Shown piece after piece: positions 34,377 through 49,893 of a stretch of DNA of 64,000 nucleotides (its first letter is position 1; each line of letters begins with the position of its first letter). The notes beneath the pieces were generated by a model that was given only the letters and a program-made list of their open reading frames with translations, was not told the origin of the DNA and made no database searches. The DNA is from Solidesulfovibrio carbinoliphilus subsp. oakridgensis (GTDB taxonomy: Bacteria; Desulfobacterota; Desulfovibrionia; Desulfovibrionales; Desulfovibrionaceae). The position numbers and the translations under genes are program-made. The stretch covers positions 1,550,001-1,614,000 of the forward strand of contig NZ_CM001368.1 in the NCBI RefSeq assembly GCF_000177215.2. The letters are read 5' to 3'.

Positions 34377-34432
34377 AGAAAATCAGCTAGTTCTGCCTGC
34401 CCCCTTGAGCAGCTAGAACTAGCTGATTTTCT
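34377..34432 (-). terminator. Original tRNA-Leu terminator, now displaced from its gene
   Basis: A perfect 18-bp inverted repeat (34377-34394 with 34415-34432) is followed on the minus strand by a T-run. It directly abuts the duplicated tRNA 3' end, where the terminator of an unoccupied tRNA-Leu gene would be. The intact tRNA is now 15 kb away and has a different hairpin next to it. Confidence 0.8.
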
Positions 34433-34489
34433 TGGTGCCCGAGGCCGGAATCGAACCGGCACGTCCCGAAGAACAAGGGATTTTAAGTC
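34432..34489 (-). repeat. attL: duplicated 3' part of tRNA-Leu
   Basis: The first copy of the 58-bp direct repeat. It reads as T-arm, variable arm and the anticodon-stem 3' side of tRNA-Leu on the minus strand, then diverges (CAAAAATCG) where the intact tRNA continues. Confidence 0.92.
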
Positions 34490-34617: not shown

Positions 34618-34691
34618 ATTTCCCTCTCCACGCTTCCGCCAGCCTTAAACAAATCTCTGGTCGTGTCAAAGTCCTCGGTCATAATTATTCT

Positions 34692-36019
34692 GGTCCTTCC
34701 GACTTTTCCGTGGGTAGGTGACCGGATATGGTCCGCCCCGGGAGGGTGACCATGAAGGACACGGACCTGTATTCTCGGATTCTGGGGCTGAGTGACCCGT
34801 GGTTTGTTGCCGACGTCGAGTTGGACACGGCGGGAGGCCGGGTGGACGTCCATGTTGATCATGTTGCCGGTGTCCGCTGGCGCTGTCCGACCTGTGGTCG
34901 CGAACTGGCTTGTCGGGATCATGCCGAGCCTCGGGTATGGCGTCACCTCGACACCTGCCAGTTCAAGACCTTCCTTCATGCCCGGATTCCGCGCGTCGAG
35001 TGCCCCGAGCACGGCGTGCTTCAGGTGAGAGTGCCTTGGGCCGAGGCTAAAGGGCGTTTTACCTTGCTCATGGAGCGCTTGATCATCGATGTGTTGCGCG
35101 AGTGCGCCACCGTGTCCGGCACCTGCCGGCTCATGCGGATCAGCTGGGATGAGGCCTGGAACGTCATGGATCGAGCCGTCCGGCGAGGGCAAACCAGGAA
35201 GAAGACCACCCCCGCACGCTATCTTGGTATCGATGAGAAGGCCTTCCGCAAAGGTCACGACTACATGACCGTGGTCTGCGACCTGCTTGGCGGAACAGTG
35301 GAGTTTGTGGCCCAGGATCGCAAGACCGAGAGCCTCGAGGACTATTACCGGCAGTTCACGGCGCAGCAACTCGAGCGCATCCGGGCCGTGGCCATGGACA
35401 TGTGGGAACCGTACTTCAAGGCCACGATCAAGCACGTGCCCGATGCGGCGCACAAGATCGTCCATGACCGCTTTCACATCATGCAGCACGTGGGCCAGGC
35501 CGTGGACAAGGTCCGCCGGCAGGAACATCGCGAACTGCTCCGCCAGGAAGACGAACGCCTCAAGGGCACCAAGTACATCTGGCTTTACCGGGAAGAGAAT
35601 CTGCCGGACAAGCACCGACCGACCTTGGAAGCCCTGAAGGCCACGAACCTGAAGGTGGCCAAGGCCTGGGCGATGAAAGAAAGCCTGGCCGGATTGTGGA
35701 ACTACCTCAGCGTCGGCTGGGCAAAGCGGTTCATGAAACGCTGGCTGACCTGGGTGAGGAAGTCAGACTTGCCCCCGATGCGCAAGGTCGGGGAGATGCT
35801 CTCTCGGCATCTGGACAACATCCTGACCTTTTGCCGGCATCGGATCACCAACGGCGCGGCCGAGGGACTCAACAGCAAGATCATGGCCATCAAGCGCAGG
35901 GCGTGCGGGTACCGCAATCGGGAGCACTTCAAGACCGCTATCTACTTCTTCTGCGGCGGCCTGGACCTCTATCCTAGACAGGCCTGAACCCGGGTACCCA
36001 CGGAAAATCCGGAAGGACC
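34692..36019 (+). mobile_element. ISL3-family insertion sequence, copy 1
   Basis: 1,328 bp with 25-bp terminal inverted repeats (start GGTCCTTCCGACTTTTCCG; the other end, inverted, GGTCCTTCCGGATTTTCCG; two mismatches). The flanks do not match each other: left ATTATTCT, right CCGCACTG. They match, inverted, the flanks of copy 3, showing that recombination between copies 1 and 3 flipped the DNA between them. Confidence 0.95.
34728..35987 (+). CDS. ISL3-family transposase (copy 1)
   Basis: 419 residues, full length. An N-terminal zinc-finger region (WRCPTCGRELACRDHAE, then ECPEHG) and helix-turn-helix precede the ISL3 DDE domain: YLGIDEKAFRKGHDY (first Asp), AVAMDMWEPY (second Asp) and the late AAEGLNSKIMAIKRRACGYRN (Glu). 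A second in-frame start, ATG at 34752, is possible. The three encoded proteins at 34728, 37980 and 44189 are identical, which suggests recent spread. Confidence 0.95.
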   Translation: MVRPGRVTMKDTDLYSRILGLSDPWFVADVELDTAGGRVDVHVDHVAGVRWRCPTCGRELACRDHAEPRVWRHLDTCQFKTFLHARIPRVECPEHGVLQVRVPWAEAKGRFTLLMERLIIDVLRECATVSGTCRLMRISWDEAWNVMDRAVRRGQTRKKTTPARYLGIDEKAFRKGHDYMTVVCDLLGGTVEFVAQDRKTESLEDYYRQFTAQQLERIRAVAMDMWEPYFKATIKHVPDAAHKIVHDRFHIMQHVGQAVDKVRRQEHRELLRQEDERLKGTKYIWLYREENLPDKHRPTLEALKATNLKVAKAWAMKESLAGLWNYLSVGWAKRFMKRWLTWVRKSDLPPMRKVGEMLSRHLDNILTFCRHRITNGAAEGLNSKIMAIKRRACGYRNREHFKTAIYFFCGGLDLYPRQA

Positions 36020-37431
36020 CCGCACTGATTGCCGGGAGTGAGGATGCAGTTGTTGTTTTGAACAGTTATTTTCATAGCATAAGCATAATATTTACTTGCA
36101 TCCATACCACCACACCAGAAATGAGGGGAATTGCCTGCAAAGACTTTGTCAAAAGCCATATTGTAACAATTTGATGTAAATATGCCTACATTTAAGGTAA
36201 AAAGTCCTTGAGAAAAATCAATGAAGTGTAATCCAAGAATACCGTTAATTCTGCCCGAGGAAAAACTATGCTTTCCCTCGGGTGTAAAATCTTCACTGAC
36301 AGCGACAGGACTTATTTCCATATTGGAAATTGTTCCGCCGATTCTTTTCATAAGACAATGCTTGTCAGAAAAAAGAAGATCTCCTGTCGTTGGGTTCGCC
36401 GCTAATCTGCCAAAAGTGGTGTAGTGTTCAGAATTTACATAAGAGCCTTGCCTGCTTAAAGATGCAACAAGAGTCGAGGCGGCTTGAATGGATGTGCCAC
36501 TCTTGATTAGAATAGAGACTGAATCAGTCGTCTTTTGGGCGACGTAGTATAGCCCGTTATCATAAACAGCATCAATATATCGATATGTTGGCAGCTGAGA
36601 CCATGATACACCGTCAGCTGAAAAAACAGAAAAGTAATACGTACCGTCTTGGTTGTCTGACGAGCAGAATACATAATCTTTGACTCGCCGCATTTTGTAA
36701 AAAGATGATCCATATGTTGAGTTTATTGCGGTAGATTCAGAAAATGTTATCCCATCTGTCCCGTATAAAAAGCACCCGGTTTGCGTTGAACCTATATTTG
36801 TTGAAATAATCCACCTTGAAGAGAGGGAAAAGTATATGATCGCTGTTTTTGTATATGAAAATGCCGTAGAAGCTGTCAAATTGGCAAGATCATCCGAATA
36901 GTAATCGCCTGTTCCAGATACTTTGACCCAACGAGAGCCGTTAAAGTCAACATCTGTCAAAGTTGTTGCACATGTTTGCCACGAATTGCCATCGGATGAA
37001 TATTGAAAATAATCAGTGCAAACAACAATCAACTTTGTGTTGTCGCCAGATATTTTGAATTTAGTGAAGCTTTTGCCCGAAGACGGCCTTAGCACAACTT
37101 GCCAGTTAACCCCATCAGCACTCTTTGAAAGGGCATAAGGATTGAGCATCCAATAGAAGTTATTAAAAAACTCCAATCCTATGGGATATAAAAAAGGAAA
37201 AATCTTTTGGGGGTCAGTCGGAGAAAGGGAAGATACGCTGGTAAACGGCGGAACATAATTCTCAAGTTCCGGCCAATCGGCCTTGTTCACGACGCCGCCG
37301 GCGCAAAGCAGGTAGGTGTCCTCGACCAGGGGACTGGAGGATGCCAATTCCACAATGGAGCCAATGGGCAGCGACATGGCTGCGCCCAAGGAACCGCCGA
37401 GGTTTTGGATGTCGGAGTTGTTGCGGCCCAT
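36020..37431 (-). pseudogene. Phage tail-fibre gene, N-terminal half (separated by IS inversion)
   Basis: 470 codons plus two bases of a tail-fibre/tail-collar protein. Start 37431 follows TAGGAGGAAATT. The N-terminus (MGRNNSDIQNLGGSLGAAMS, then LPIGSIVELASSSPLVEDTYLLCAGG) is typical of phage tail proteins; a beta-propeller-like array of YSSDGNSWQ/SADGVSWSQ repeats follows. The frame runs into IS copy 1 at codons for Gln-Cys-Gly. The other half is at 45485-46189 on the opposite strand; joining them at the shared 8 bp restores one frame of 702 residues. Its GC is much lower than the host's. Confidence 0.88.
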
Positions 37432-37443
37432 GCGAATTTCCTC

Positions 37444-37509
37444 CTATGCGGCGGCGCGGACGCCGTTGACGTTAATGCTGACGCTGTCGGAGGAGGCGTA
37501 GGCGTAGAT
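37444..37509 (-). pseudogene. C-terminal stub of a phage tail-region gene
   Basis: The last 21 codons (IYAYASSDSVSINVNGVRAAA) of a gene that ended 12 bp before the tail-fibre start. Everything before it has been replaced by the DUF3987-like fragment in another frame, so a deletion joined the two around 37505. Confidence 0.55.
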
Positions 37510-37777
37510 GGATGGTTTCGTCCACAAAGGTGTGCGGGCCTCGGTTGGGCGCGTAGCCGTAAACTTCCGCCCCGAAGCGCACCAACGCGGTGATGCAGAC
37601 CGCCGCCGGGTCGGCTTCGCTGTTGCGCGTCGCCAGCCGCACAAATTCACCCAGGATGCCCGGGCAGGCGTCAAACGAGAATTGGGGCCACTCCTTGAGG
37701 TTGAGGCCAATGGGATCATCCGGAGGGACCTCTTGATGCGCACAGGGTAGCGAGGAGACTGAGGGCCTGCCGCTCAT
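37510..37777 (-). pseudogene. DUF3987 (YfjI-like) primase-type gene, N-terminal fragment
   Basis: About 89 codons from ATG 37777. IGLNLKEWPQFSFDACPG and FVRLATRNSEADPAAVCITALVRFGAEVYG resemble the N-terminus of phage/satellite DUF3987 proteins, usually 500 residues or more. The frame then runs into unrelated tail-gene sequence, so the catalytic part is gone. Its ATG overlaps the stop of the AlpA-like fragment (ATGA), as in satellite operons. Confidence 0.65.
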
Positions 37778-37947
37778 TTGCCACCTCTGTCGCTCTGTTC
37801 CGCCTTTGTTGGTCTGCCGCGTCGCCTGGCAGGAGGCAGAGCATGACCGAGGCTATTCTTAGCCTTGATATCGGCCTGGGCGGCTTTGTCGTCGATCCAA
37901 GCGTCGACGGACTCCACCTGCCAGGCTAGGCGGCGACCCAACTTTAT
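37774..37947 (-). pseudogene. AlpA-like phage regulator, C-terminal fragment cut by IS copy 2
   Basis: 57 codons. IKLGRRLAWQVESVDAWIDD is the end of the MerR-like/AlpA helix-turn-helix (the usual PIKLGRR-x-AWR motif), followed by a basic tail (PPARRRGRPTKAE). The DNA-recognition helix and start are missing; IS copy 2 begins exactly before the Ile codon. Confidence 0.7.
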
Positions 37948-39275
37948 GGTCCTTCCGGATTTTCCGTGGGTACCCGGGTTCAGGCCTGTCTAGGATAGAG
38001 GTCCAGGCCGCCGCAGAAGAAGTAGATAGCGGTCTTGAAGTGCTCCCGATTGCGGTACCCGCACGCCCTGCGCTTGATGGCCATGATCTTGCTGTTGAGT
38101 CCCTCGGCCGCGCCGTTGGTGATCCGATGCCGGCAAAAGGTCAGGATGTTGTCCAGATGCCGAGAGAGCATCTCCCCGACCTTGCGCATCGGGGGCAAGT
38201 CTGACTTCCTCACCCAGGTCAGCCAGCGTTTCATGAACCGCTTTGCCCAGCCGACGCTGAGGTAGTTCCACAATCCGGCCAGGCTTTCTTTCATCGCCCA
38301 GGCCTTGGCCACCTTCAGGTTCGTGGCCTTCAGGGCTTCCAAGGTCGGTCGGTGCTTGTCCGGCAGATTCTCTTCCCGGTAAAGCCAGATGTACTTGGTG
38401 CCCTTGAGGCGTTCGTCTTCCTGGCGGAGCAGTTCGCGATGTTCCTGCCGGCGGACCTTGTCCACGGCCTGGCCCACGTGCTGCATGATGTGAAAGCGGT
38501 CATGGACGATCTTGTGCGCCGCATCGGGCACGTGCTTGATCGTGGCCTTGAAGTACGGTTCCCACATGTCCATGGCCACGGCCCGGATGCGCTCGAGTTG
38601 CTGCGCCGTGAACTGCCGGTAATAGTCCTCGAGGCTCTCGGTCTTGCGATCCTGGGCCACAAACTCCACTGTTCCGCCAAGCAGGTCGCAGACCACGGTC
38701 ATGTAGTCGTGACCTTTGCGGAAGGCCTTCTCATCGATACCAAGATAGCGTGCGGGGGTGGTCTTCTTCCTGGTTTGCCCTCGCCGGACGGCTCGATCCA
38801 TGACGTTCCAGGCCTCATCCCAGCTGATCCGCATGAGCCGGCAGGTGCCGGACACGGTGGCGCACTCGCGCAACACATCGATGATCAAGCGCTCCATGAG
38901 CAAGGTAAAACGCCCTTTAGCCTCGGCCCAAGGCACTCTCACCTGAAGCACGCCGTGCTCGGGGCACTCGACGCGCGGAATCCGGGCATGAAGGAAGGTC
39001 TTGAACTGGCAGGTGTCGAGGTGACGCCATACCCGAGGCTCGGCATGATCCCGACAAGCCAGTTCGCGACCACAGGTCGGACAGCGCCAGCGGACACCGG
39101 CAACATGATCAACATGGACGTCCACCCGGCCTCCCGCCGTGTCCAACTCGACGTCGGCAACAAACCACGGGTCACTCAGCCCCAGAATCCGAGAATACAG
39201 GTCCGTGTCCTTCATGGTCACCCTCCCGGGGCGGACCATATCCGGTCACCTACCCACGGAAAAGTCGGAAGGACC
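37948..39275 (-). mobile_element. ISL3-family insertion sequence, copy 2
   Basis: 1,328 bp with the same terminal repeats as copies 1 and 3, in minus orientation. Flanks are AACTTTAT on the left (inside an alpA-like gene) and TATAAATC on the right (inside mqsR). They do not match each other or the flanks of copies 1 and 3, so this copy is a recombinant of two insertions whose partner ends are lost. Confidence 0.95.
37980..39239 (-). CDS. ISL3-family transposase (copy 2)
   Basis: 419 residues, identical to the copy at 34728 and intact. Same zinc-finger, helix-turn-helix and DDE features; catalytic residues appear to be present. Confidence 0.95.
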   Translation of the reverse strand: MVRPGRVTMKDTDLYSRILGLSDPWFVADVELDTAGGRVDVHVDHVAGVRWRCPTCGRELACRDHAEPRVWRHLDTCQFKTFLHARIPRVECPEHGVLQVRVPWAEAKGRFTLLMERLIIDVLRECATVSGTCRLMRISWDEAWNVMDRAVRRGQTRKKTTPARYLGIDEKAFRKGHDYMTVVCDLLGGTVEFVAQDRKTESLEDYYRQFTAQQLERIRAVAMDMWEPYFKATIKHVPDAAHKIVHDRFHIMQHVGQAVDKVRRQEHRELLRQEDERLKGTKYIWLYREENLPDKHRPTLEALKATNLKVAKAWAMKESLAGLWNYLSVGWAKRFMKRWLTWVRKSDLPPMRKVGEMLSRHLDNILTFCRHRITNGAAEGLNSKIMAIKRRACGYRNREHFKTAIYFFCGGLDLYPRQA

Positions 39276-39416
39276 TATAAATCCATGACCGCCTACGCGG
39301 ACAACGCGGCTTGGCAGGATGTGTATCATGTGCCGACATCCGCTGGGATTTTGTACGTGAAATTTATGGCTGGAAGGATTTCGGCCTTTGATCTGCTCTC
39401 TTTCAAGGAGAAATAG
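39276..39416 (+). pseudogene. mqsR: mqsR toxin, C-terminal fragment
   Basis: 46 codons of MqsR, the mRNA interferase that cuts at GCU/GCA-type sites. YKSMTAYADNAAWQDVYHV and LLSFKEK align with the end of E. coli MqsR (98 residues). The N-terminal half was removed by IS copy 2, which joins in at the Tyr codon. No start or promoter remains. The stop lies one base before the mqsA ATG, the usual toxin-antitoxin spacing. Confidence 0.85.
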
Positions 39417-39417
39417 C

Positions 39418-39840
39418 ATGGAAACACATCCCATGTGCCACGAAGACGGAACCGAAATGGTTCGTGACGTGAGGCCGGTGGAATTTTCCTACAAGGGACA
39501 GACGATGACTGTCGCCATGCCCGGATGGTATTGCCCGAAATGCGGGGAAGGTCTCTATACCCGTGCGGACATGAAGGTCTCCGACCGGGCACTAAACGCC
39601 ATGAAGGCGAGGTGCGAGGGGCTGTTGGACGGCCCGCAGATCAAGCGCATCCGCAAAAAGCTCGGGCTGACCCAGGCGGCGGCCGGCGACCTCATCGGCG
39701 GCGGCCCGAAGGCGTTCACCAAGTACGAGAAGGGGGACGCCCTGACCAGTCGGGCCGTGACCAACCTTTTGAAGGTGCTTGATGCATTGCCTGACGCGCT
39801 GACCATCCTTCGGGAAAATCAGGACCGTCCTTCCTGCTGA
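39418..39840 (+). CDS. mqsA: MqsA-type antitoxin/regulator
   Basis: 140 residues. An N-terminal zinc-binding domain has WYCPKCGEGLY as its second CxxC. The first pair, which in E. coli is CPVC, is HPMC here, so one ligand is His or lost. A C-terminal Xre-type helix-turn-helix follows, LTQAAAGDLIGGGPKAFTKYEKG, nearly as in MqsA. It would neutralise MqsR and repress its own operon. The start was chosen at 39418, directly after the mqsR stop. The toxin is broken and the native promoter gone, so the protein may be orphaned or read from the IS. Confidence 0.88.
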   Translation: METHPMCHEDGTEMVRDVRPVEFSYKGQTMTVAMPGWYCPKCGEGLYTRADMKVSDRALNAMKARCEGLLDGPQIKRIRKKLGLTQAAAGDLIGGGPKAFTKYEKGDALTSRAVTNLLKVLDALPDALTILRENQDRPSC

Positions 39841-39953
39841 ATCTTTTGGTGCCCTGGGCCACCAGAGTGCCCGGCGGACGCCTCGGAGACTTCTCGAGCA
39901 AGACCTCATCCGTTTTGGCGGCGGACGCCAATATGGAGCAACGCCGGAGCGGA

Positions 39954-40913
39954 TTAATGATGTTGCACCATGGGCGAACGAATGAAATCAGTCCAAAAAC
40001 TGGTTAATCGGGCCACCATCGTTTCCGTCTTTTGCTCGGACGCTGCACTGGCGTGATTGATTTCGACGGCCGCCGTCATCCCTGCCGCCAGTTCGATTCC
40101 TGGCGGCACCTGGTCGATATGGATATGGATCGGGATACGCTGAGCAAGTCGCACCCAACTAAATGTTGCTTCCACGTTTGGTAGACCAAGATGGCCGGGC
40201 GTCTCATTGCTATTTTCGATGCCGCGTCCAATGCTTTCGACATGACCTGTTACAGGTTGATCAAAACCCATCAGCATGATCTGCACCGTGCGGCCAATGT
40301 GGATTTGCCGGACCTTCGTCTCTTCGAAGTACCCGGTGATCCAAAAGCTGGCCGCGTCGAGAACAGCGATTTTCGTCACGCCGGCTGTCGCGTAGTCGCC
40401 GGGACGCAGATTCAGATTGGTGACATAGCCATCGACCGGCGAGCGGATGGTGGCGCGGGTGAGATTGAGCTTGGCGAGATCGAGAGCCGCCAACGCACCC
40501 TGATAGGTGGCGGCGGCCACAGCTGCCGCTCCAGTCGCTTGCTGGATCTGTTCCGGGGTTATGACCCCCGGAATCTGACTGCGACGCCGCGCGGCCGCTT
40601 CTAGGACAATCATATCTTGACGCTTGGCGTCGACATCGGCCTTTGCGGACGCCACGGCGAGCCGGAACCGTTCAGGGTCGATCACATAGAGAATGTCACC
40701 CCGATGGACATACTGATTGTCGACAACGGGCACGGTGCTGACTGTACCGGAAACTTCCGGCCCGACCTGTACGACATGTGCGCTTACTCGACCGTCGCGG
40801 GTCCAGGGCTTTATATCGTATCGCTCCCATGCCTGCAGAGCAACGAGAGAGGCGATTACGACAAGGCAAAGCGTCAGGGCGTAGCGGCCGAGCAGTGATA
40901 AAGTATACTTCAT
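39954..40913 (-). CDS. HlyD-family periplasmic adaptor (AaeA/FusE-like)
   Basis: 319 residues: one N-terminal membrane helix (YALTLCLVVIASLVALQAW), then TRDGRVSAHVVQVGPEVSG (lipoyl domain), an alpha-hairpin, IRSPVDGYVTNLNLRPGDYA and a beta-barrel with GRTVQIMLMGFDQPVTGHV. This is the AaeA/EmrA-like membrane-fusion protein of aromatic-acid efflux pumps. Start codon overlaps the stop of the DUF1656 gene (TAATG). Codon use is less GC-extreme than the host. Confidence 0.9.
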   Translation of the reverse strand: MKYTLSLLGRYALTLCLVVIASLVALQAWERYDIKPWTRDGRVSAHVVQVGPEVSGTVSTVPVVDNQYVHRGDILYVIDPERFRLAVASAKADVDAKRQDMIVLEAAARRRSQIPGVITPEQIQQATGAAAVAAATYQGALAALDLAKLNLTRATIRSPVDGYVTNLNLRPGDYATAGVTKIAVLDAASFWITGYFEETKVRQIHIGRTVQIMLMGFDQPVTGHVESIGRGIENSNETPGHLGLPNVEATFSWVRLAQRIPIHIHIDQVPPGIELAAGMTAAVEINHASAASEQKTETMVARLTSFWTDFIRSPMVQHH

Positions 40914-41128
40914 TAAAATGATCCTCTCGTTGATGGTATATGCTGCAAGAGAAGAGCATAGATGATGATAAATGTGGCGAGTTCGACGATCGGCCGGTAT
41001 GTGAATACGCGGCAGAGGCCTGAGAAGTAGAGGAGGCCAATCACCACGACAGTGGCGACAAGCGCGATGATCGCGAGCACCAGCAGACCGGGGATGAAGA
41101 CACCTCCGATGTTGAGATCGACAATCAT
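40913..41128 (-). CDS. DUF1656 (AaeX-like) small membrane protein
   Basis: 71 residues with two hydrophobic helices (LLVLAIIALVATVVVIGLLYF and ELATFIIIYALLL). It is the small inner-membrane partner found between FUSC permease and adaptor genes in AaeXAB-like operons. Overlaps the FUSC gene stop by ATGA. Confidence 0.9.
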   Translation of the reverse strand: MIVDLNIGGVFIPGLLVLAIIALVATVVVIGLLYFSGLCRVFTYRPIVELATFIIIYALLLQHIPSTRGSF

Positions 41129-43254
41129 AAACTGCCTGTCTCCTTTGAGATGCCACTCGGAGCGAGGGCGAACTGAAGATCGATGAGCAGGTCGAGCAAC
41201 TGCGAGCGGTCCTGGATGGAACTGTCGGCGATGAGCGCCATTAGCTTTCCAATGCGCTGGGTCAATTCAATGGGCGCGACAGGTTTCGTCCGACCCTTGG
41301 TGTCGAAGTGTGCGGCGATCGCCGAAAAAAGCTCGCGCGCTGTCTCGCCGATGTCGCCGCCGACGTGACGGATCGCATGGCGGAGTTGACCAACGGCGTG
41401 GCCGACGCGAAGATGGTGCAACGGATCATCGAGCGCGTCCGAATAAGAATTCTTGGACAACCGCATCTTTGGGAGCAGCAGTGCCATCCGATCGACCATG
41501 AGGTTTGTCCAGTGCGCTGCAGCATTTCCCTTGCCGAGGGCGTGCCGCCTGACATCCATCCGGCTTGGCCGAAGCAATCGATTGATCGCCGCGTCGACCG
41601 GCACGGTTTGCAGCATGGTCATGCTCACCAAGGCGAATATAAGTGAGGCGAACAGTGCGATGATGGTGTTGAGAGACCCGGCGAAGTCGCCGGCATAGGT
41701 GGTCCCAAGCCCTGCGAGGATCGGAATCGTGAGAGTGATGCCAAACCCCATCTGCATCGTCCGGCCGCGCGCCTGGAGGGAACCCGCGAACAGGAATGCC
41801 GGCGCGAGCACCGCGACCAAAACGGGAAAGTCCGTCACGCGGGGCAGAATAAGGAAACTGTAGGCAAGGCTCATCGCCACGCCGTAGACTGTGCCGACCG
41901 TATATTGGAGGACGTGTGGTGCCGGTTCGTCGGCTGTCCCGTACAAGGAGCAGCACACGCCGAGGACCGACACGGCCATTGCGCCGTCCGGCCAGGCCGA
42001 CCATATCCAGACGAGACAGCCGACCACGATGCCGACCGTGGCGCCCAGCGCAGCCCGGGCGGCCTTCCAGTGGTCGCGGTGATAGACATAGCCGCTGGCG
42101 CGGCTCAGCCATTGGTACGCAGCAGCACCGCGTGATCGACCGCCACGCGTGAGGTTTCGTTCGAGCCGATCGCAGTCGTGAAGCAGGCCGAGCATCTCGG
42201 CGAGGTGGCGAACAAGGTTGGCGGCGAGCCTCTCGTCAGGCGTTGCGGCGTTCGCGGCGATACGTGTCCGGAGCGATCGTGCGCGGTCGATCAGTTGTAT
42301 GGCAACACCGTCTTTTTCGATCGTGTCGCCGTCCCCGATCCACCGCTCAATCTCACACAGCAATGCGGCCAGTTCGTCGGGCACGGCGTGGTCTCCACTT
42401 TGGAGGGCCCTGCCCCGGTCCTCGATCCCCGGAGCGAGCAGAAGCAGTCGCGCAAGCCGGGCATGGAGCAACCGCCGATCCTTGGTGCGCGGCTTCACAG
42501 GGGCCAGATCGTACGGCAGATGTGTCGCGAACCCCTGAAGGCCGAGCAGGTCCACTGCGAGCTTCTTGCATGCGTGACGGACCTGTTGTCCCGATCCTCC
42601 GAGAAGCGCCTCGCCTGCCAGCCGTCGCGCATCCCTTAAGGTCGCCGACAGTTTACCGAGGAACTGGCCCGCCATGCGCTTTGGCAGGACGAAACGATGC
42701 ATGAGGATGGTGCAAAGGATTCCGAGCGAGATTTCCTGGACCCGCACCGACGCCGTCTCAAAGACCGCATGAGGGTTGAATACGCTGGGAAAGCCGATCA
42801 GGCTCGCGGTGTAGCCGGCGAGAACGAAGGCATAGGCTCGCGGTGTGCGGTCGAGCAGGGCGAAGTAGAGGCACAGACCGATCCAGCCCGCGATGGCCAC
42901 ACTGCATATGATCGGGTTGTTCACAAAATTCGGGACGATCGCCACTGTTGCCACAGCGCCGGCCATCGTCCCGGCAAGACGATAGACGCCGCGACCGAGC
43001 GACGCGCCGGCAGAGGGCTGCGAGACGAGATAGACGGTGAGGATGGCCCAATAAGGCTTGGGAAGCCCGATGCGTAGCGAAAGGTAGTAGGCCAACATCG
43101 CTGCGGCGAAACTTTTCACCGAGAAGAACAACGCGTCCGCGTCCGCTTGCAAGGCAGGGCTCTGGAAGAGGCGAGTCCCCGTGTGCGCGATGGTGGCCCA
43201 GGTTCTCGTCAACGCTCTCTTGGAAGAAAGTATGATGTTCACGCGAGGCATCAT
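41125..43254 (-). CDS. FUSC-family permease (AaeB/fusaric-acid resistance type)
   Basis: 709 residues in two similar halves, each with a set of membrane helices followed by a soluble region. LSLRIGLPKPYWAILTVYLVSQPSAG is the first-half signature and GCLVWIWSAWPDGAMAVSVL begins the second. These inner-membrane proteins expel aromatic carboxylic acids such as p-hydroxybenzoate or fusaric acid. With the DUF1656 protein and adaptor it forms an aaeXAB-like operon. Two adjacent ATG codons (43254, 43251) make the start uncertain by one residue; the ribosome-binding site is weak. Confidence 0.92.
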   Translation of the reverse strand: MMPRVNIILSSKRALTRTWATIAHTGTRLFQSPALQADADALFFSVKSFAAAMLAYYLSLRIGLPKPYWAILTVYLVSQPSAGASLGRGVYRLAGTMAGAVATVAIVPNFVNNPIICSVAIAGWIGLCLYFALLDRTPRAYAFVLAGYTASLIGFPSVFNPHAVFETASVRVQEISLGILCTILMHRFVLPKRMAGQFLGKLSATLRDARRLAGEALLGGSGQQVRHACKKLAVDLLGLQGFATHLPYDLAPVKPRTKDRRLLHARLARLLLLAPGIEDRGRALQSGDHAVPDELAALLCEIERWIGDGDTIEKDGVAIQLIDRARSLRTRIAANAATPDERLAANLVRHLAEMLGLLHDCDRLERNLTRGGRSRGAAAYQWLSRASGYVYHRDHWKAARAALGATVGIVVGCLVWIWSAWPDGAMAVSVLGVCCSLYGTADEPAPHVLQYTVGTVYGVAMSLAYSFLILPRVTDFPVLVAVLAPAFLFAGSLQARGRTMQMGFGITLTIPILAGLGTTYAGDFAGSLNTIIALFASLIFALVSMTMLQTVPVDAAINRLLRPSRMDVRRHALGKGNAAAHWTNLMVDRMALLLPKMRLSKNSYSDALDDPLHHLRVGHAVGQLRHAIRHVGGDIGETARELFSAIAAHFDTKGRTKPVAPIELTQRIGKLMALIADSSIQDRSQLLDLLIDLQFALAPSGISKETGSL

Positions 43255-43288
43255 TTCCGCTTTTCATCTTCAAAGGAACTCGATATTT

Positions 43289-43315
43289 TGCCAATAAATA
43301 CTTAAAAAATGCCAA
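43289..43315. promoter_or_regulatory. Putative regulator-binding direct repeat between araC-type gene and efflux operon
   Basis: TGCCAA occurs at 43289-43294 and at 43310-43315, 21 bp apart (two helix turns), inside the AT-rich 73-bp divergent gap. This spacing is usual for AraC-family operators, but the assignment rests on pattern only. Confidence 0.4.
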
Positions 43316-43327
43316 ACGAGGTCCTCA

Positions 43328-44155
43328 ATGTCCGTCTCACTCTCGGCTGTCTCTGCCTTCGACCCCGATCTGACGGATCGGCCGGCGGTCGCCCGACAAC
43401 TCGACTTTGCGGATCACGGGGCGGAGGTGCCGAGGCACGCGCATCGCAAGGGGCAGTTGATCCTCGCACTGCGCGGAGCGGTCACCTGCACTGCGGACAA
43501 CGAAATCTGGATCGTCCCCCCCAACTGTGGAGTCTGGATACCGGGCGGAGTGCCGCATAGCGCCCGGGCGACCGAAAACGCTCGGCTCAACTATCTTTTC
43601 GTGGAGCCAGGGGCGGCAACCCTGCCTGAGGAGTGTTGCACGCTGTCCGTCTCCCCGATGATTCAAGAAATCGTCGACCGATTGGCCCGGGAAGGGGCGG
43701 ACTACCCGCCGGACAGCCACGCCGCCCGATTGGCAAGGGTGGTCCTCGACGAGTTGGTCGAGATGCCACGTGAAAGATTTAACCTCCCCATCTCGAACGA
43801 TCCGAAAATCCGAGCGATAGCCGACGCCCTGGCGGCCAAACCGTTTGATAGGGGGACATTGGGAGATTGGGCGAAGCGTGTCGCCATGAGCGAAAGGTCG
43901 CTCGCCCGCTTGATGATCCGGGAGACGGGCTTGACGTTCGGACGCTGGCGGCAGCAGTTACGCCTTGTTGTCGCGCTTCGGGAACTGGCCAGCGGCGCGT
44001 CGGTGCAGAATGTGGCGGCCGAGTTGGGCTACGAGTCGGTCAATGCCTTCATCACAATGTTTAAGAATGCTCTTGGGAGCACGCCGGCACAATATTTTTC
44101 GCAACGCCGGTCGATGCCGCACATGTTTCCCAAAGAGGATGGAGCCATAGAATAA
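43328..44155 (+). CDS. AraC-family transcriptional regulator
   Basis: 275 residues. An N-terminal cupin sensor (RHAHRKGQLILALRGAVT, then PNCGVWIPGGVPHSAR) is followed by the two helix-turn-helix units: GDWAKRVAMSERSLARLMI (first) and VQNVAAELGYESVNAFITMFKNALGSTPAQYF (second). It is divergent from the AaeXAB-like operon 73 bp away, the usual arrangement for local control. The C-terminal end lies one base from IS copy 3. Confidence 0.9.
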   Translation: MSVSLSAVSAFDPDLTDRPAVARQLDFADHGAEVPRHAHRKGQLILALRGAVTCTADNEIWIVPPNCGVWIPGGVPHSARATENARLNYLFVEPGAATLPEECCTLSVSPMIQEIVDRLAREGADYPPDSHAARLARVVLDELVEMPRERFNLPISNDPKIRAIADALAAKPFDRGTLGDWAKRVAMSERSLARLMIRETGLTFGRWRQQLRLVVALRELASGASVQNVAAELGYESVNAFITMFKNALGSTPAQYFSQRRSMPHMFPKEDGAIE

Positions 44156-44156
44156 T

Positions 44157-45484
44157 GGTCCTTCCGGATTTTCCGTGGGTACCCGGGTTCAGGCCTGTCT
44201 AGGATAGAGGTCCAGGCCGCCGCAGAAGAAGTAGATAGCGGTCTTGAAGTGCTCCCGATTGCGGTACCCGCACGCCCTGCGCTTGATGGCCATGATCTTG
44301 CTGTTGAGTCCCTCGGCCGCGCCGTTGGTGATCCGATGCCGGCAAAAGGTCAGGATGTTGTCCAGATGCCGAGAGAGCATCTCCCCGACCTTGCGCATCG
44401 GGGGCAAGTCTGACTTCCTCACCCAGGTCAGCCAGCGTTTCATGAACCGCTTTGCCCAGCCGACGCTGAGGTAGTTCCACAATCCGGCCAGGCTTTCTTT
44501 CATCGCCCAGGCCTTGGCCACCTTCAGGTTCGTGGCCTTCAGGGCTTCCAAGGTCGGTCGGTGCTTGTCCGGCAGATTCTCTTCCCGGTAAAGCCAGATG
44601 TACTTGGTGCCCTTGAGGCGTTCGTCTTCCTGGCGGAGCAGTTCGCGATGTTCCTGCCGGCGGACCTTGTCCACGGCCTGGCCCACGTGCTGCATGATGT
44701 GAAAGCGGTCATGGACGATCTTGTGCGCCGCATCGGGCACGTGCTTGATCGTGGCCTTGAAGTACGGTTCCCACATGTCCATGGCCACGGCCCGGATGCG
44801 CTCGAGTTGCTGCGCCGTGAACTGCCGGTAATAGTCCTCGAGGCTCTCGGTCTTGCGATCCTGGGCCACAAACTCCACTGTTCCGCCAAGCAGGTCGCAG
44901 ACCACGGTCATGTAGTCGTGACCTTTGCGGAAGGCCTTCTCATCGATACCAAGATAGCGTGCGGGGGTGGTCTTCTTCCTGGTTTGCCCTCGCCGGACGG
45001 CTCGATCCATGACGTTCCAGGCCTCATCCCAGCTGATCCGCATGAGCCGGCAGGTGCCGGACACGGTGGCGCACTCGCGCAACACATCGATGATCAAGCG
45101 CTCCATGAGCAAGGTAAAACGCCCTTTAGCCTCGGCCCAAGGCACTCTCACCTGAAGCACGCCGTGCTCGGGGCACTCGACGCGCGGAATCCGGGCATGA
45201 AGGAAGGTCTTGAACTGGCAGGTGTCGAGGTGACGCCATACCCGAGGCTCGGCATGATCCCGACAAGCCAGTTCGCGACCACAGGTCGGACAGCGCCAGC
45301 GGACACCGGCAACATGATCAACATGGACGTCCACCCGGCCTCCCGCCGTGTCCAACTCGACGTCGGCAACAAACCACGGGTCACTCAGCCCCAGAATCCG
45401 AGAATACAGGTCCGTGTCCTTCATGGTCACCCTCCCGGGGCGGACCATATCCGGTCACCTACCCACGGAAAAGTCGGAAGGACC
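44157..45484 (-). mobile_element. ISL3-family insertion sequence, copy 3
   Basis: 1,328 bp, minus orientation, with the same inverted repeats. Flanks AGAATAAT (left) and CAGTGCGG (right) pair with those of copy 1 after inversion. It split the tail-fibre gene, whose C-terminal part begins with the CAGTGCGG duplicate. Confidence 0.95.
44189..45448 (-). CDS. ISL3-family transposase (copy 3)
   Basis: 419 residues, identical to the other two copies and intact, with the same DDE features. Confidence 0.95.
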   Translation of the reverse strand: MVRPGRVTMKDTDLYSRILGLSDPWFVADVELDTAGGRVDVHVDHVAGVRWRCPTCGRELACRDHAEPRVWRHLDTCQFKTFLHARIPRVECPEHGVLQVRVPWAEAKGRFTLLMERLIIDVLRECATVSGTCRLMRISWDEAWNVMDRAVRRGQTRKKTTPARYLGIDEKAFRKGHDYMTVVCDLLGGTVEFVAQDRKTESLEDYYRQFTAQQLERIRAVAMDMWEPYFKATIKHVPDAAHKIVHDRFHIMQHVGQAVDKVRRQEHRELLRQEDERLKGTKYIWLYREENLPDKHRPTLEALKATNLKVAKAWAMKESLAGLWNYLSVGWAKRFMKRWLTWVRKSDLPPMRKVGEMLSRHLDNILTFCRHRITNGAAEGLNSKIMAIKRRACGYRNREHFKTAIYFFCGGLDLYPRQA

Positions 45485-46189
45485 CAGTGCGGAGACACCA
45501 CCGCGGGATATTTGATGGGGATCAAGACGCCGGCTCCTGGAAGGTATGTTCTTGGGAAGTGTTTTGGCGCGAGCTCAATGGACTTTTATTGCGCAGATAC
45601 AGTAACGAATACGCAGATAGCCGCAGGGTCCAATTATGGCAGCGACCCTAGGCTGTCCATTGCGGATGGAATTTGTTCCGCCGGCCCATATCAATTGAAT
45701 GGGAGTACCCCAAGTCTTTTCTCGGGGCTTGGCACAACTAACAGATCCACAGGGGCCATAACAAATTTGTCCCAGACTATGGCTGTGCTCTCGACAATCG
45801 TTAATGGTACAGCGATTTATGCCACCACGTCTCTTCTTTATCGTCCTGGTGAGTGGGGACTCAGTGATATGACCTCAGCAGGCCCAGCTCCAGGAGCCAT
45901 GGCCGAATTAAACCAGTGCACTGCGGGATATTTTATCATCGGTCAATCTGGTTCTTTATTTTCTGCCGATGGTTACAACTGGATGCCCATCGCTTTTAAA
46001 AAGCCAGCATCGGACAATAACGCGGTGGCAATCCCTATATCGTATACCGATGGCAAACTTTTCATGTTCGACGGCGTGGGCACGATGTCGGTATTTACCG
46101 TGTCTGATTACGACCCCCAGACCCAGATTCAGCTGCCCAACATTAAAAGCACCAAACCCGGCGTCAACTGCTACCTCAAGGCCGCGTAA
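45485..46189 (+). pseudogene. Phage tail-fibre gene, C-terminal half
   Basis: 235 codons beginning with the shared QCG codons (target duplicate), then DTTAGYLMGIKTPAPGRYVLG and more YSADGYNW-like propeller repeats (SGSLFSADGYNWMPIAFK), ending QLPNIKSTKPGVNCYLKAA, a typical tail-fibre end. The N-terminal half is at 36020-37431. An internal ATG near 45515 might give a shorter product, but without a good binding site. Confidence 0.85.
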
Positions 46190-46199
46190 GGATACCCCC

Positions 46200-46763
46200 A
46201 TGATCATATACGACAAGCTCACAAAAGCAGCTCAGGAGTGGCCGAACAAGGCCCCCGTGCCCACGACCCATACCACCATCGCCCCACCGACATCGGACCA
46301 GCCCGTGACCTGGCTGGACGGCGGCTGGCGCGTGGGCGAGGTCCCGGCCGTGGAGCCGACGGAGGAGGAGGTGGCGGCGGCGTTGGCCCAGGCCAAGACC
46401 GTCAAGCTGGCCGAAATCCGCGCCGCCTGCGACATGGCCCTGGCCCCGCTGGCGGCGGCCTATCCCGAACGGGAGGTGCAGTCCTGGCCGCAGCAGATCG
46501 CCGAGGCGACCGCCTACGCGGCCGACGCGACGGCGGCCGTGCCGCTGCTGTCCTCCATGGCTGCCCAGCGGCCCAGCCTGGGGGACTCCGATGCGGAGCG
46601 GGTGGCCGAGCTGGCCCGGCGCATCCTGGCCAACGCCGCCGCGTGGTCGACCATCGCCGGGCCCATCATAGGCAAGCGGCAAGCCTTGGAAGACGCCGTG
46701 GTCGCGGCCGACACGCCCGAGGCCGTGGCCGACATCACGATCGATTTCGGAGGTGCCGCATGA
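46200..46763 (+). CDS. Phage tail-fibre assembly-like protein
   Basis: 187 residues. N-terminal MIIYDKLTKAAQEWPNKAP, a short WLDGGWRVGEVP segment, then a helical region (LAEIRAACDMALAPLAAAYPEREVQSWPQQ) characteristic of DUF4376/tail-assembly proteins that follow fibre genes. Starts 11 bp after the fibre gene; overlaps the patatin start by ATGA. GC content here returns towards that of the host. Confidence 0.78.
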   Translation: MIIYDKLTKAAQEWPNKAPVPTTHTTIAPPTSDQPVTWLDGGWRVGEVPAVEPTEEEVAAALAQAKTVKLAEIRAACDMALAPLAAAYPEREVQSWPQQIAEATAYAADATAAVPLLSSMAAQRPSLGDSDAERVAELARRILANAAAWSTIAGPIIGKRQALEDAVVAADTPEAVADITIDFGGAA

Positions 46764-47695
46764 CCCGCCGCATCCTGTGCATCGACGGCGGCGGCATCCT
46801 GGGCCTGATCCCCGCGCTCGTCCTGGCCGAGATCGAGGCCCGGGCCGGACGGCTGGCCGGATCGCTGTTTGACCTGGTCGCCGGGACCTCGACCGGCGGC
46901 ATCATCGCCTGCGCCGTGGCCGCCGGCATCCCGGCCGGCCGTGTGGTCGACCTCTACCGGCAGCGCGGCAAAGACATCTTCTCGCGCTCCTGGAGGCACC
47001 GGCTGGCTTCGGGCTTCGGTCTGCTTGGGCCACGGTACGGGGCCGAGGGCATCGAGGCAGCCCTGGACGATGTCTTCGGCGACCGCAAACTTTCGGACTG
47101 CGCCCTGGATCTGCTCATCCCGGCCTACGATATTGAGGCTCGGTGCTCGGTCTTGTTTAAGAGCGCAAAGGCCAGCGACAGCCGCCGGGACTACTACCTC
47201 CGCGACGTCTGCCGGGCCACGTCGGCCGCGCCGACCTATTTTCCGCCGGCCCGCATCAACAGCTTGGCCGGCGAGGAGGCCACATTGGTGGACGGTGGTA
47301 TCTACGCCAACAACCCGGCCGCCTGCGCCCTGGCCCAGGCGGCCAAGGCCGGCAGCATCGGCGACGTGGCCATGGTGTCGCTCGGCACAGGCCAGCTGAC
47401 GCGGCCCTATTTATATGAGGCGGCCCAAGGTTGGGGACTGGCGGCCTGGGTGCGGCCGCTACTCGATTGCATGTTCGACGGCCAGTCGGACACGGCCGCC
47501 CACCAGTGCCAGGCGCTCCTGGGAGACCGGGCCATCCGGCTCCAGCCGGCCCTGCCCCGGGATCTGGCCATGGACGATGCCGGCGAGTCGGCCCTGGCCA
47601 CCCTGGAGGCCATCGCCCGGGGACTGATCGCGGACCAGGATGCGCTGCTGGATAAGATTTGCGAGATGGCGCTGCCGAAGGCGGCAGCGGCCTAA
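46760..47695 (+). CDS. Patatin-like phospholipase (phage cargo)
   Basis: 311 residues. Oxyanion loop DGGGILGLIPALVL (residues 9-22), nucleophile elbow GTSTGG with Ser44, and catalytic DGGIYANNP with Asp178 give a complete Ser-Asp dyad. No signal peptide is present. The family hydrolyses membrane phospholipids; relatives serve as defence effectors (CapV type) or unknown phage functions. Here the gene is coupled (ATGA) to a tail-assembly gene and precedes com-methyltransferase, the position where prophages carry moron genes. The lack of a neighbouring cyclase argues against CBASS. Confidence 0.88.
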   Translation: MTRRILCIDGGGILGLIPALVLAEIEARAGRLAGSLFDLVAGTSTGGIIACAVAAGIPAGRVVDLYRQRGKDIFSRSWRHRLASGFGLLGPRYGAEGIEAALDDVFGDRKLSDCALDLLIPAYDIEARCSVLFKSAKASDSRRDYYLRDVCRATSAAPTYFPPARINSLAGEEATLVDGGIYANNPAACALAQAAKAGSIGDVAMVSLGTGQLTRPYLYEAAQGWGLAAWVRPLLDCMFDGQSDTAAHQCQALLGDRAIRLQPALPRDLAMDDAGESALATLEAIARGLIADQDALLDKICEMALPKAAAA

Positions 47696-47846
47696 AGTGG
47701 AGCAGGCGGGACGGGTGGAGCCGTCCCACTGGCCCGGCGCGCTAACGCCGGCCCACCAGCTTTCGCCGGCTGCTCCCTGCCCATGATCTGGCGACCAGGG
47801 GTACGGGGGGCGTAACAGCGGGAGCGCAACCTGTAAAGAGAAGGGA

Positions 47847-48023
47847 ATGAGGGAGATACGATGCGGAGCGTGTAACAGGTTGTTGGCTAAGGGAGAGGCT
47901 GTAAACCTCTCCATCAAATGCCCGCGATGCGGGACCATGAATCTCCTGAGGGCCACGAGCCCCGGATATGAGCCCAAAGAGGCCCCATCAGGAGATCAAA
48001 TTGTATGTCGGAAGTCTTTTTAG
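47847..48023 (+). CDS. com: Com-like zinc-finger translational regulator
   Basis: 58 residues, too short for most gene callers. MREIRCGACNRLLAKG and LSIKCPRCGTMNLLRA carry the two CxxC pairs of the Mu Com family, an RNA-binding activator of translation of a DNA-modification gene. Start 47847 follows GAGAAGGG. Its last 56 bp overlap the cytosine methyltransferase start, repeating the com-mom layout of phage Mu with a methyltransferase in place of mom. The preceding 150 bp have several hairpins that could be targets. Confidence 0.78.
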   Translation: MREIRCGACNRLLAKGEAVNLSIKCPRCGTMNLLRATSPGYEPKEAPSGDQIVCRKSF

Positions 48024-48762
48024 CGGGGCTGGCCTGGGCGACATCGCCGCCGAAGCGATCGGTCTTTCTCATGCCTGGTTTTGCGAGTGCGACCCGTTTG
48101 CCCGTTCCATCCTGGAAAGGCGCTGGCCGGGTGTCCCCGTTTTCCACGATGTGAGGGACATCCATGCGCAAAACGCCAAACGGGTTGATATCGTCATTGG
48201 AGGCTTCCCCTGCCAGGACATCAGCTGCGCCGGGGCAGGGGCCGGCATCACCGGCAAAAGGTCCGGCCTGTGGTCGGAATACGCAAGAATCCTTGGCGAG
48301 CTACGACCCCAATTCGCGGTCGTGGAAAACGTCAAGGCCCTCCTCGGACGGGGCATTGACCGCGTTCTTGGGGACTTGGCCGAGATCGGGTACGATGCGG
48401 AGTGGGACGTGTTTCCCGCGGCAGCCTTTGGCGCCCCGCACCTGCGTGAGAGGGTTATCCTTGTTGCCTACCCCGGCGGCGATCGAGGGGCAGCCCGTGC
48501 GCCAATACTTGCGCCGGGAGGAGACCTGGAAAACCACGGGCAATCTGACGGCCCGGCTCATTGGAATGGTCTACGGCTTGACGGACCGCGAGCCCCGGCC
48601 GCCATATCGGCTTATCGTGGCCCCGTCGTTTGTCGAGTGGATGATGGGGGTGCCCATTGGATGGACAGACTCCGCTGCCTCGGCAACGGCATCACGCCTC
48701 CTCTCATGCGGTGGGTGCTCGGGCGGATAATGGCGGCTGAGCTTGATCGGTCCCGCCCATGA
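47968..48762 (+). CDS. C5-cytosine DNA methyltransferase (short, phage type)
   Basis: 264 residues. Motif I LFSGAGLGD, motif IV GGFPCQD with catalytic Cys82, motif VI VVENV, motif VIII AAFGAPHLRERVILVA and motif X-like LRCLGNGITPPLMRWVLGRI. The target-recognition part is only about 60 residues and looks frame-disturbed: an alternative frame over 48400-48690 carries sequence more typical of phage methyltransferase C-termini. It may therefore be partly inactivated. Weak Shine-Dalgarno sequence at its ATG is consistent with translation dependent on Com. Confidence 0.75.
   Translation: MSPKRPHQEIKLYVGSLFSGAGLGDIAAEAIGLSHAWFCECDPFARSILERRWPGVPVFHDVRDIHAQNAKRVDIVIGGFPCQDISCAGAGAGITGKRSGLWSEYARILGELRPQFAVVENVKALLGRGIDRVLGDLAEIGYDAEWDVFPAAAFGAPHLRERVILVAYPGGDRGAARAPILAPGGDLENHGQSDGPAHWNGLRLDGPRAPAAISAYRGPVVCRVDDGGAHWMDRLRCLGNGITPPLMRWVLGRIMAAELDRSRP
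48164..48730 (+). other. Overlapping open frame inside the methyltransferase gene
   Basis: A 188-residue frame (+1 relative to the methyltransferase) reading SLEASPARTSAAPGQGPAS, then WPRSGTMRSG, SLLPTPAA and FVEWMMGVPIGWTD. These phrases recur in phage proteins annotated around methyltransferases, so the frame is either overprinted coding or the product of old frameshifts in the gene. ATG 48164 has GAGGGACA upstream. I do not claim it is translated. Confidence 0.35.
48540..48740 (+). repeat. Methyltransferase 3' end, first copy of a 0.2-kb direct duplication
   Basis: 201 bp here match 200 bp at 49391-49590 with few substitutions and one base missing in the second copy (at the CTCCGCTGC/CCCCGTGC position). 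The duplicate lies 850 bp downstream, across the hypothetical gene at 48800. Confidence 0.9.
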
Positions 48763-49225: not shown

Positions 49226-49390
49226 TTCCCCGCCAGGGGGGCGGGCCACCTTCAAAACTAAATGTCGTTGTGTACAAATCTACGCGTCGCGCTACAGCAA
49301 TATTTGCCCTCCCGAAGAAACCAAATGAGCGGCACCGCCCATATCCGTTCGTCCTCTCAGAGGGCAAGTCAGTTGGAAATCCATCTACAG

Positions 49391-49590
49391 GCAACCATAC
49401 GGCCCGGATCTTTGGAATGGTCTACGGCTTGACGGACCGCGAGCCCAGGCCGCCGTATCGGCTTATCGTGGCCCCGTCGTTTGTCGAGTGGATGATGGGG
49501 GTGCCCATTGGATGGACAGACCCCGTGCCTCGGCAACGGCATCACGCCTCCTCTCATGCGGTGGGTGCTCGGGCGGATAACGGCGGCTGA
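49391..49590 (+). pseudogene. Duplicated 3' end of the methyltransferase gene
   Basis: Second copy of the duplication. One frame reads GMVYGLTDREPRPPY and FVEWMMGVPIGWTD before going out of phase after a one-base deletion relative to the first copy. It has no start and no catalytic motifs. Confidence 0.85.
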
Positions 49591-49805: not shown

Positions 49806-49863
49806 TTGGTGCCCGAGGCCGGAATCGAACCGGCACGTCCCGAAGAACAAGGGATTTTAAGTC
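49806..49863 (-). repeat. attR: 58-bp direct repeat within tRNA-Leu
   Basis: Second copy of the 58-bp repeat, covering the 3' part of the intact tRNA and one base beyond its CCA. Confidence 0.92.
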
Positions 49864-49893
49864 CCTGGCGTCTACCAGTTCCGCCACTCGGGC
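49807..49893 (-). tRNA. tRNA-Leu(UAA)
   Basis: 87 nt with encoded CCA. Acceptor stem GCCCGAG/CTCGGGC, D-arm TGGCGGAACTGGTAGACGC, anticodon loop CTTAAAA giving UAA, a long variable arm (TTGTTCTTCGGGACG) as in class II tRNAs, and T-loop GTTCGATTC. It decodes UUA, a rare codon in this GC-rich genome. Upstream (49930-49935, minus) TTGACG is a possible -35; the -10 is weak. Its 3' end is the integration site of the island. Confidence 0.95.

What the first reader, a model, noticed from the sequence alone, without database searches (positions are those of the whole stretch)
34692..45484. 8.1-kb inversion between two IS copies, proved by swapped target duplications and a split phage gene
IS copies 1 and 3 have non-matching flanks: ATTATTCT/CCGCACTG and AGAATAAT/CAGTGCGG. 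Flipping 36020-44156 restores a perfect 8-bp duplication at each copy. It also joins 470 codons plus 2 bases of the tail fibre to its C-terminal part, in frame, giving 702 codons and a stop. Three independent coincidences (two duplications and a frame) agree. After the flip, alpA, DUF3987, tail fibre, assembly protein, patatin and com/methyltransferase all lie on one strand in normal phage order.
Basis: seen in the sequence. Interest (0 to 1): 0.72.

Follow-up and report, generated by a model that had tools for sequence, protein, structure and literature searches.

The report
Ordinary inversion between two insertion sequences
Two identical copies of a mobile element facing opposite ways have apparently flipped the 8.1 kb of DNA between them in a groundwater bacterium, a well-known kind of genome rearrangement that here changes little, and which could still be a mistake of the genome assembly.

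Summary
IS copies 1 (34692-36019, +) and 3 (44157-45484, -) are identical ISL3-family elements whose 8-bp flanks are swapped reciprocally: the only shared octets in 180 cross-copy comparisons among the genome's ten copies. Two relatives hold the IS-free site of copy 1, attL flank joined to the efflux cassette through one octet. The same genome holds an uninterrupted 702-residue homologue of the split gene, on which the window's two pieces, searched apart, overlap by exactly 8 bp. One inversion explains the present order.

Corrections: "normal phage order" is wrong, because the alpA/DUF3987 side comes from a mobilizable island and only the fibre side from a phage. Copy 2 also has unmatched flanks, with about 690 bp lost (by G109). 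The flip alone would not make the gene whole, since copy 3 would still sit in it.

The genome fits D. carbinoliphilus FW-101-2B, read with 454 and 2x35-bp Illumina. Reads of that kind are too short to cross the IS, so a mis-oriented assembly stays possible. IS-mediated inversion is well known; interest is low.

The parts
34432..34489 (+). attL-like 58-bp repeat of the island (copy of the tRNA-Leu 3' end)
   Evidence: 100% direct repeat of 49806-49863; tRNA-Leu at 49807-49893
34684..34691 (+). octet ATTATTCT, left flank of IS copy 1; partner now at 44149-44156
34692..36019 (+). IS copy 1, ISL3 family, one arm of the inversion
   Evidence: 1328 bp, 100% identical to copies 2 and 3; DDE_Tnp_ISL3 8.5e-77, ISL3 family transposase NF033550
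36020..44156 (.). inverted segment (minimum extent)
   Evidence: swapped 8-bp flanks; attL flank next to the araC end in G109 and G151
36020..36027 (+). octet CCGCACTG (reads CAGTGCGG on the - strand), right flank of copy 1; partner now at 45485-45492
36020..37431 (-). N-terminal piece (470 codons + 2 bases) of a phage gene called tail fibre by context
   Evidence: 16 of 470 residues differ from residues 1-470 of the intact homologue in the same genome; no Pfam or PHROGs match at E <= 0.01
37493..37511 (.). fusion point between phage tail module and mobilizable-island module
   Evidence: similarity to the prophage ends at 37511; similarity to the islands starts at 37509 in five loci and 37493 in two; sequences
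37509..37947 (-). remnants of the DUF3987-like gene and of the alpA-like gene (names not confirmed by family search)
   Evidence: matches in pieces at 79-96% identity to seven related islands; no curated family above cut-off for the window remnant or the G109 genes
37948..39275 (-). IS copy 2; flanks AACTTTAT / TATAAATC do not match; stands in place of about 690 bp in G109 (654 to 864 bp in the seven loci)
39276..39837 (+). 3' part of an mqsR-like toxin gene (label recalled) and intact mqsA antitoxin gene
   Evidence: MqsA 3.6e-29, TIGR03830; block in 10 of the 13 other genus genomes and at a second place in this genome
39954..44155 (.). efflux cassette: HlyD-type, DUF1656 and FUSC genes (-), AraC-type regulator (+)
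   Evidence: 94% identical in G109 and 95% in G151
44157..45484 (-). IS copy 3, other arm of the inversion, inserted in the fibre-like gene
45485..46186 (+). C-terminal piece of the fibre-like gene, stop at 46187-46189
   Evidence: 1 of 234 residues differs from the C-terminal 234 residues of the intact homologue
46200..48759 (+). phage genes downstream: 187-residue gene (best PHROGs match of unknown function, weak match to a tail fibre family), patatin, Com, cytosine methylase
   Evidence: 93% identical DNA to C1:357415-360665
49806..49863 (-). attR-like repeat inside tRNA-Leu

Best explanation
A tRNA-Leu-integrated island, itself a fusion of a mobilizable-island end and a phage tail module, took up three copies of one recently active ISL3-family element. 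Copy 1 went in between attL and the araC/efflux cassette. Copy 3 went into the fibre-like gene in the opposite orientation. Homologous recombination between copies 1 and 3 then inverted the 8.1 kb between them, carrying along copy 2. The event is a by-product of repeats and has no evident function. Shown: the swapped 8-bp duplications, the IS-free junction in relatives, the uninterrupted homologue, and the derived order. Inferred: that RecA-type recombination did it, that copy 2 was already there, and that the inversion is present in the living strain.
For: Reciprocal swap of two 8-bp flanks, unique among ten copies. G109 C1:147960-147998 and G151 C358:8491-8529 carry the IS-free junction attL flank - single octet (ATCATCCT against ATTATTCT, 6 of 8) - araC end; an IUPAC pattern for it matches 2 of 288 family genomes. 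In 7 of 7 loci compared (of 11 others with the mqsA block), the attL flank lies at the mqsA/araC end and the alpA-side block lies next to mqsR, as the window would read before the flip. The two gene pieces, searched apart, map to 360658-362069 and 359964-360665 on the intact homologue and overlap by the 8 bases 360658-360665. Recombination between inverted repeats giving inversions is standard (PMC8072062, passages). ISL3 elements are listed as copy-out-paste-in (PMC7986276, passages), which as I understand that pathway gives simple insertions and leaves the inversion to homologous recombination.
Against: No read data were available, so the orientation in the living strain is untested. The sequencing reported for this strain is 454 Titanium plus 2x35-bp Illumina; reads of that kind (lengths of 454 reads recalled) cannot cross 1328 identical bases. 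Three of ten copies lack any matching flank, so flanks in this genome are not always clean. The sequence cannot tell homologous recombination from replicative intramolecular transposition. No second assembly of the strain with this island was found (0 matches in viral contigs). Only 2 relatives carry the full attL-araC junction, and their copies of it are identical to each other.
Confidence: 0.7

Rival explanations
1. Assembly mis-orientation: the strain still has the ancestral order, and the assembly joined the 8.1-kb segment the wrong way round between two identical inverted IS copies.
For: G000 has 4,221,670 bases, equal to the 4,102,695-base contig plus 97,864 and 21,111, the two plasmids of D. 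carbinoliphilus FW-101-2B. Its paper, read whole, reports only 454 Titanium and Illumina 2x35 bp reads, assembled with Newbler and Velvet and finished in Consed. A wrong join would give exactly the swapped flanks. PMC11276467 (passages) states that misassembly at long repeats closely resembles genuine recombination.
Against: At other identical IS copies flanks are paired correctly: 4 of 10 with an exact 8-bp duplication and 1 with 7 bp. Copy 2 joins its ancestral neighbours. So some information spanning 1.3 kb (mate pairs or finishing PCR, not described in the paper) was probably used.
Confidence: 0.2
2. Replicative intramolecular transposition: one resident copy attacked a second site in trans, making the second copy and the inversion in one step.
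For: Such transposition gives deletions or inversions and loss of the flanking repeats (PMC7986276, passages on the IS6 family), so the same flank pattern is expected.
Against: The same paper lists ISL3 among copy-out-paste-in families. 4 of 10 copies in this genome show exact paired duplications, as in simple insertion.
Confidence: 0.06
3. A programmed invertible switch of a phage fibre, like the Gin/Cin/Hin systems.
For: An invertible segment ends inside a fibre-like gene.
Against: A whole-genome search finds resolvase/invertase domains at 3 places (C1:3250295, C2:84935, C1:1010292), none within the 64-kb window, and no tyrosine integrase in the window among 14 matches. The ends are whole IS copies, not short crossover sites. 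The gene is interrupted by copy 3 in either orientation, and the phage module is a fragment. An invertase acting from elsewhere in the genome is not formally excluded.
Confidence: 0.02

Closest known systems
IS-mediated inversions in bacterial chromosomes (e.g. Shigella, PMC8072062, passages read)
   Same: Inverted IS copies bound the inverted segment; the general mechanism is the same.
   Different: Small (8.1 kb), confined to one island, in an environmental sulfate reducer; the flanking duplications and outside homologues let the direction be read.
ISL3-family insertion sequences
   Same: ISL3 transposase, about 25-bp terminal inverted repeats (92% alike), 8-bp duplications at several copies.
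   Different: Nothing tested sets it apart from the family; its exact name was not looked up.
Invertible phage fibre switches (Gin/Cin type, recalled)
   Same: Inversion end in a fibre-like gene.
   Different: No invertase in the window, no short crossover sites seen; the gene is broken in both orientations.

Membership tests
IS-mediated inversion | Identical or near-identical repeats in inverted orientation at both ends | tested here: met
   100% over 1328 bp, inverted
IS-mediated inversion | Target duplications exchanged between the two copies | tested here: met
   Both octets swapped reciprocally
IS-mediated inversion | Uninverted order in relatives or homologues | tested here: met
   G109 and G151 junction; 7 of 7 compared loci for island order; intact homologue
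IS-mediated inversion | Orientation confirmed on DNA by spanning reads or PCR | not testable with these tools
   No reads held; paper reports short reads
ISL3 family | ISL3 transposase | tested here: met
   PF01610 8.5e-77; NF033550 331 bits against cut-off 180
ISL3 family | 8-bp target duplication | tested here: met
   Exact in 4 of 10 copies, crosswise in copies 1 and 3, 7 bp in one, none in three; that 8 bp is usual for ISL3 is recalled
Gin/Cin-type invertible fibre | Site-specific invertase in or near the segment | tested here: not met
   Resolvase domain PF00239 at 3 places in the genome, 0 in the window
Gin/Cin-type invertible fibre | Inversion gives a whole fibre gene in at least one orientation | tested here: not met
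   Copy 3 lies inside the gene in both orientations
Composite transposon (copies 2 and 3 around the efflux cassette) | Matching duplication at the outer flanks | tested here: not met
   AACTTTAT outside copy 2, CAGTGCGG outside copy 3

The most novel reading that the evidence does not exclude
The segment still inverts in growing cells, so that a culture holds both orientations. The present assembly shows the one that was commoner or was picked by chance.
Probability: 0.35. Interest if true: 0.25.

Novelty: new member of a known kind. Interest (0 to 1): 0.2.

Why it matters
It is a clean worked example: flank octets plus two kinds of outside homologue fix both the event and its direction. It also warns that in a genome read with short reads such a pattern can be an assembly error. 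For this strain it shows a recently active ISL3 element (ten copies, eight identical and two sharing one substitution) breaking and rearranging a mobile island. No function is evidently gained or lost by the flip.

Tried and rejected
Phage collection: 0 matches in 50,697 records for either gene piece. A relative of the fibre-like gene outside this genome was not found: 1 of 149 family genomes, the own one, for the N piece; none in genome contigs for the intact homologue (8 pattern matches, none confirmed). Viral contigs gave one contig, identical over 10,779 bases to the own prophage at C1:356291-367069, so no independent witness. The junction pattern gave 0 matches in viral contigs.

Rejected: composite transposon of copies 2 and 3 (outer flanks differ); programmed switch (no invertase in the window; gene broken in both orientations); pairing of copy 2 with another unmatched copy (no shared octets); the guess, from memory, that the genome is D. 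carbinolicus (PMC7808614 passages: other size and plasmid number). The extension of the copy 1/copy 2 repeat by 16 bases includes 7 identical bases CGGTCAT and looks like chance; not tested.

Literature: searches (listings). PMC10266640 and PMC3119063 (passages) had nothing decisive; PMC10264941 (passages) notes genome inversions by halophile IS elements. The genome paper PMC4357754 (whole text) does not mention this island or IS. That the inversion is not in print rests on these searches alone.
Full report
WHAT IS THERE. The window holds three identical 1328-bp IS copies: copy 1 at 34692-36019 (+), copy 2 at 37948-39275 (-), copy 3 at 44157-45484 (-). The transposase is ISL3 family (PF01610 8.5e-77; NF033550 331 bits, cut-off 180). 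The genome has ten full-length copies, eight identical and two with the same substitution at position 520, plus three partial matches. The three window copies stand in an island of about 15.4 kb bounded by a 58-bp repeat, 34432-34489 and 49806-49863, the 3' end of a tRNA-Leu gene. A whole-genome search finds no tyrosine integrase and no resolvase domain in the window (14 and 3 matches elsewhere).

FLANKS. Read in IS orientation, copy 1 is ATTATTCT|IS|CCGCACTG and copy 3 is CCGCACTG|IS|ATTATTCT. These are the only octets shared between different copies in 180 comparisons. Chance for two random octets with the pooled composition is about 1.4e-4, and for both named octets about 2e-11. Of the ten copies, 4 have an exact 8-bp duplication, 1 has 7 bp, copies 1 and 3 are swapped, and 3 have none, copy 2 among them.

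OUTSIDE TEST 1, THE EMPTY SITE OF COPY 1. In G109 (contig C1) window 34427-34676 matches 147722-147971 at 90%, and window 39282-44156 matches 152834-147979 on the other strand at 94%. The two window stretches, whose adjoining ends are today 9.5 kb apart, are thus neighbours there, with one octet (ATCATCCT against ATTATTCT, 6 of 8) between them. G151 shows the same. Its contig has the length (24,618) of DQED01000046.1, a MAG named UBA12339, which the same pattern found in the named collection. An IUPAC pattern of this junction matches 2 of 288 family genomes, G109 and G151, with the same letters in both.

OUTSIDE TEST 2, THE SITE OF COPY 3. The fibre-like gene has an uninterrupted homologue of 702 codons in the same genome at C1:359961-362069. 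The N piece (window 36020-37431) maps from 360658 up, with 16 of 470 residues different. The C piece (from 45485) maps from 360665 down, with 1 of 234 residues different. They overlap by exactly eight bases, a single CAGTGCGG in the homologue. The pieces were searched apart and not joined; their lengths add to 2106 nt, the coding length of the homologue.

ISLAND ORDER. Of the eleven other places with the mqsA block I compared seven: G109, G151, G080, G133, G152, G097 and the second island of this genome near 2.66 Mb. In 7 of 7 the alpA-side block (pieces of window 37493-37950) lies next to the mqsR block in the same relative direction as across copy 2, and the attL flank (or part of it) lies at the mqsA/araC end, not at the fibre end. 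The efflux cassette (HlyD type, DUF1656, FUSC, AraC type) is present in G109 and G151. In G080, G133, G152 and G097 mqsA ends about 160 bp from the attL flank; in the 2.66-Mb island 2.6 kb of other sequence lies between them. So the present order of the window is derived, and a single flip between copies 1 and 3 explains it. Four places (G025, G150, G121, G058) were not compared.

(a) 'Normal phage order' does not hold. The G109 island carries a relaxase and, next to its far att repeat, a tyrosine integrase, so the alpA/DUF3987 end belongs to a mobilizable island. The fibre-to-methylase block matches a prophage by a tRNA-Arg in this genome. The two meet at 37493-37511. The names alpA and DUF3987 were not confirmed by Pfam or NCBIfam; mqsR is a recalled label. 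'Tail fibre' rests on context: no PHROGs match for the pieces or the homologue, no Pfam match for the pieces, and for the homologue only a beta-propeller match below its cut-off. (b) Copy 2 stands where G109 has about 690 bp (654 to 864 bp in the seven loci) holding, in G109, the 5' parts of the alpA-like and mqsR-like genes. Both genes are broken here; the flanks do not match, so a deletion probably came with or after insertion. (c) Copy 3 interrupts the fibre-like gene in both orientations, so the flip neither breaks nor mends it.

MECHANISM. Shown: insertion of copies 1 and 3 (flanks, empty sites) and the derived order. Inferred: homologous recombination between identical inverted copies. 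Replicative intramolecular transposition would leave the same flanks (PMC7986276, passages), but that paper lists ISL3 among copy-out-paste-in families. The present data cannot decide.

THE ASSEMBLY QUESTION. That strain was read with 454 Titanium and Illumina 2x35 bp, which cannot cross 1328 identical bases (454 read length recalled). A wrong join would look the same, as PMC11276467 (passages) says of long repeats in general. Against it: flanks at five other copies are paired, so spanning information was probably used. I give 0.2 to a mis-oriented assembly.

VERDICT. A real and well-supported pattern; an ordinary IS-mediated inversion (new member of a known kind), provided that the assembly is right. 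No functional switch is apparent.

Noticed in passing
37948-39275 and flanks: IS copy 2 replaces about 690 bp (by G109) between an alpA-like and an mqsR-like gene; both lose their 5' parts while mqsA stays intact.
   Followed up: partly
37493-37511: Fusion of a mobilizable-island gene remnant with the 3' end of a phage tail gene, a chimeric island without integrase.
   Followed up: partly
48536-48740 and 49387-49590: The 3' end of the cytosine methylase gene is present twice (94-98% alike); the resident prophage near C1:355.9-357.6 kb has a similar repeat.
   Followed up: no
39954-44155: FUSC/HlyD/DUF1656/AraC efflux cassette, present between mqsA and attL in only some islands of the genus; 2 Azospirillum plasmids carry relatives at 73-75% DNA identity.
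   Followed up: partly
L010 (copy at C1:2236207) and L002 (copy at C1:3361389): Two further IS copies with unmatched flanks and no partner octets among the ten copies, suggesting deletions beside them.
   Followed up: no
L047 (G133 C2:790001-810000): Three copies of the att repeat in a row (near 791582, 802810, 808938), suggesting islands stacked at one tRNA-Leu.
   Followed up: no
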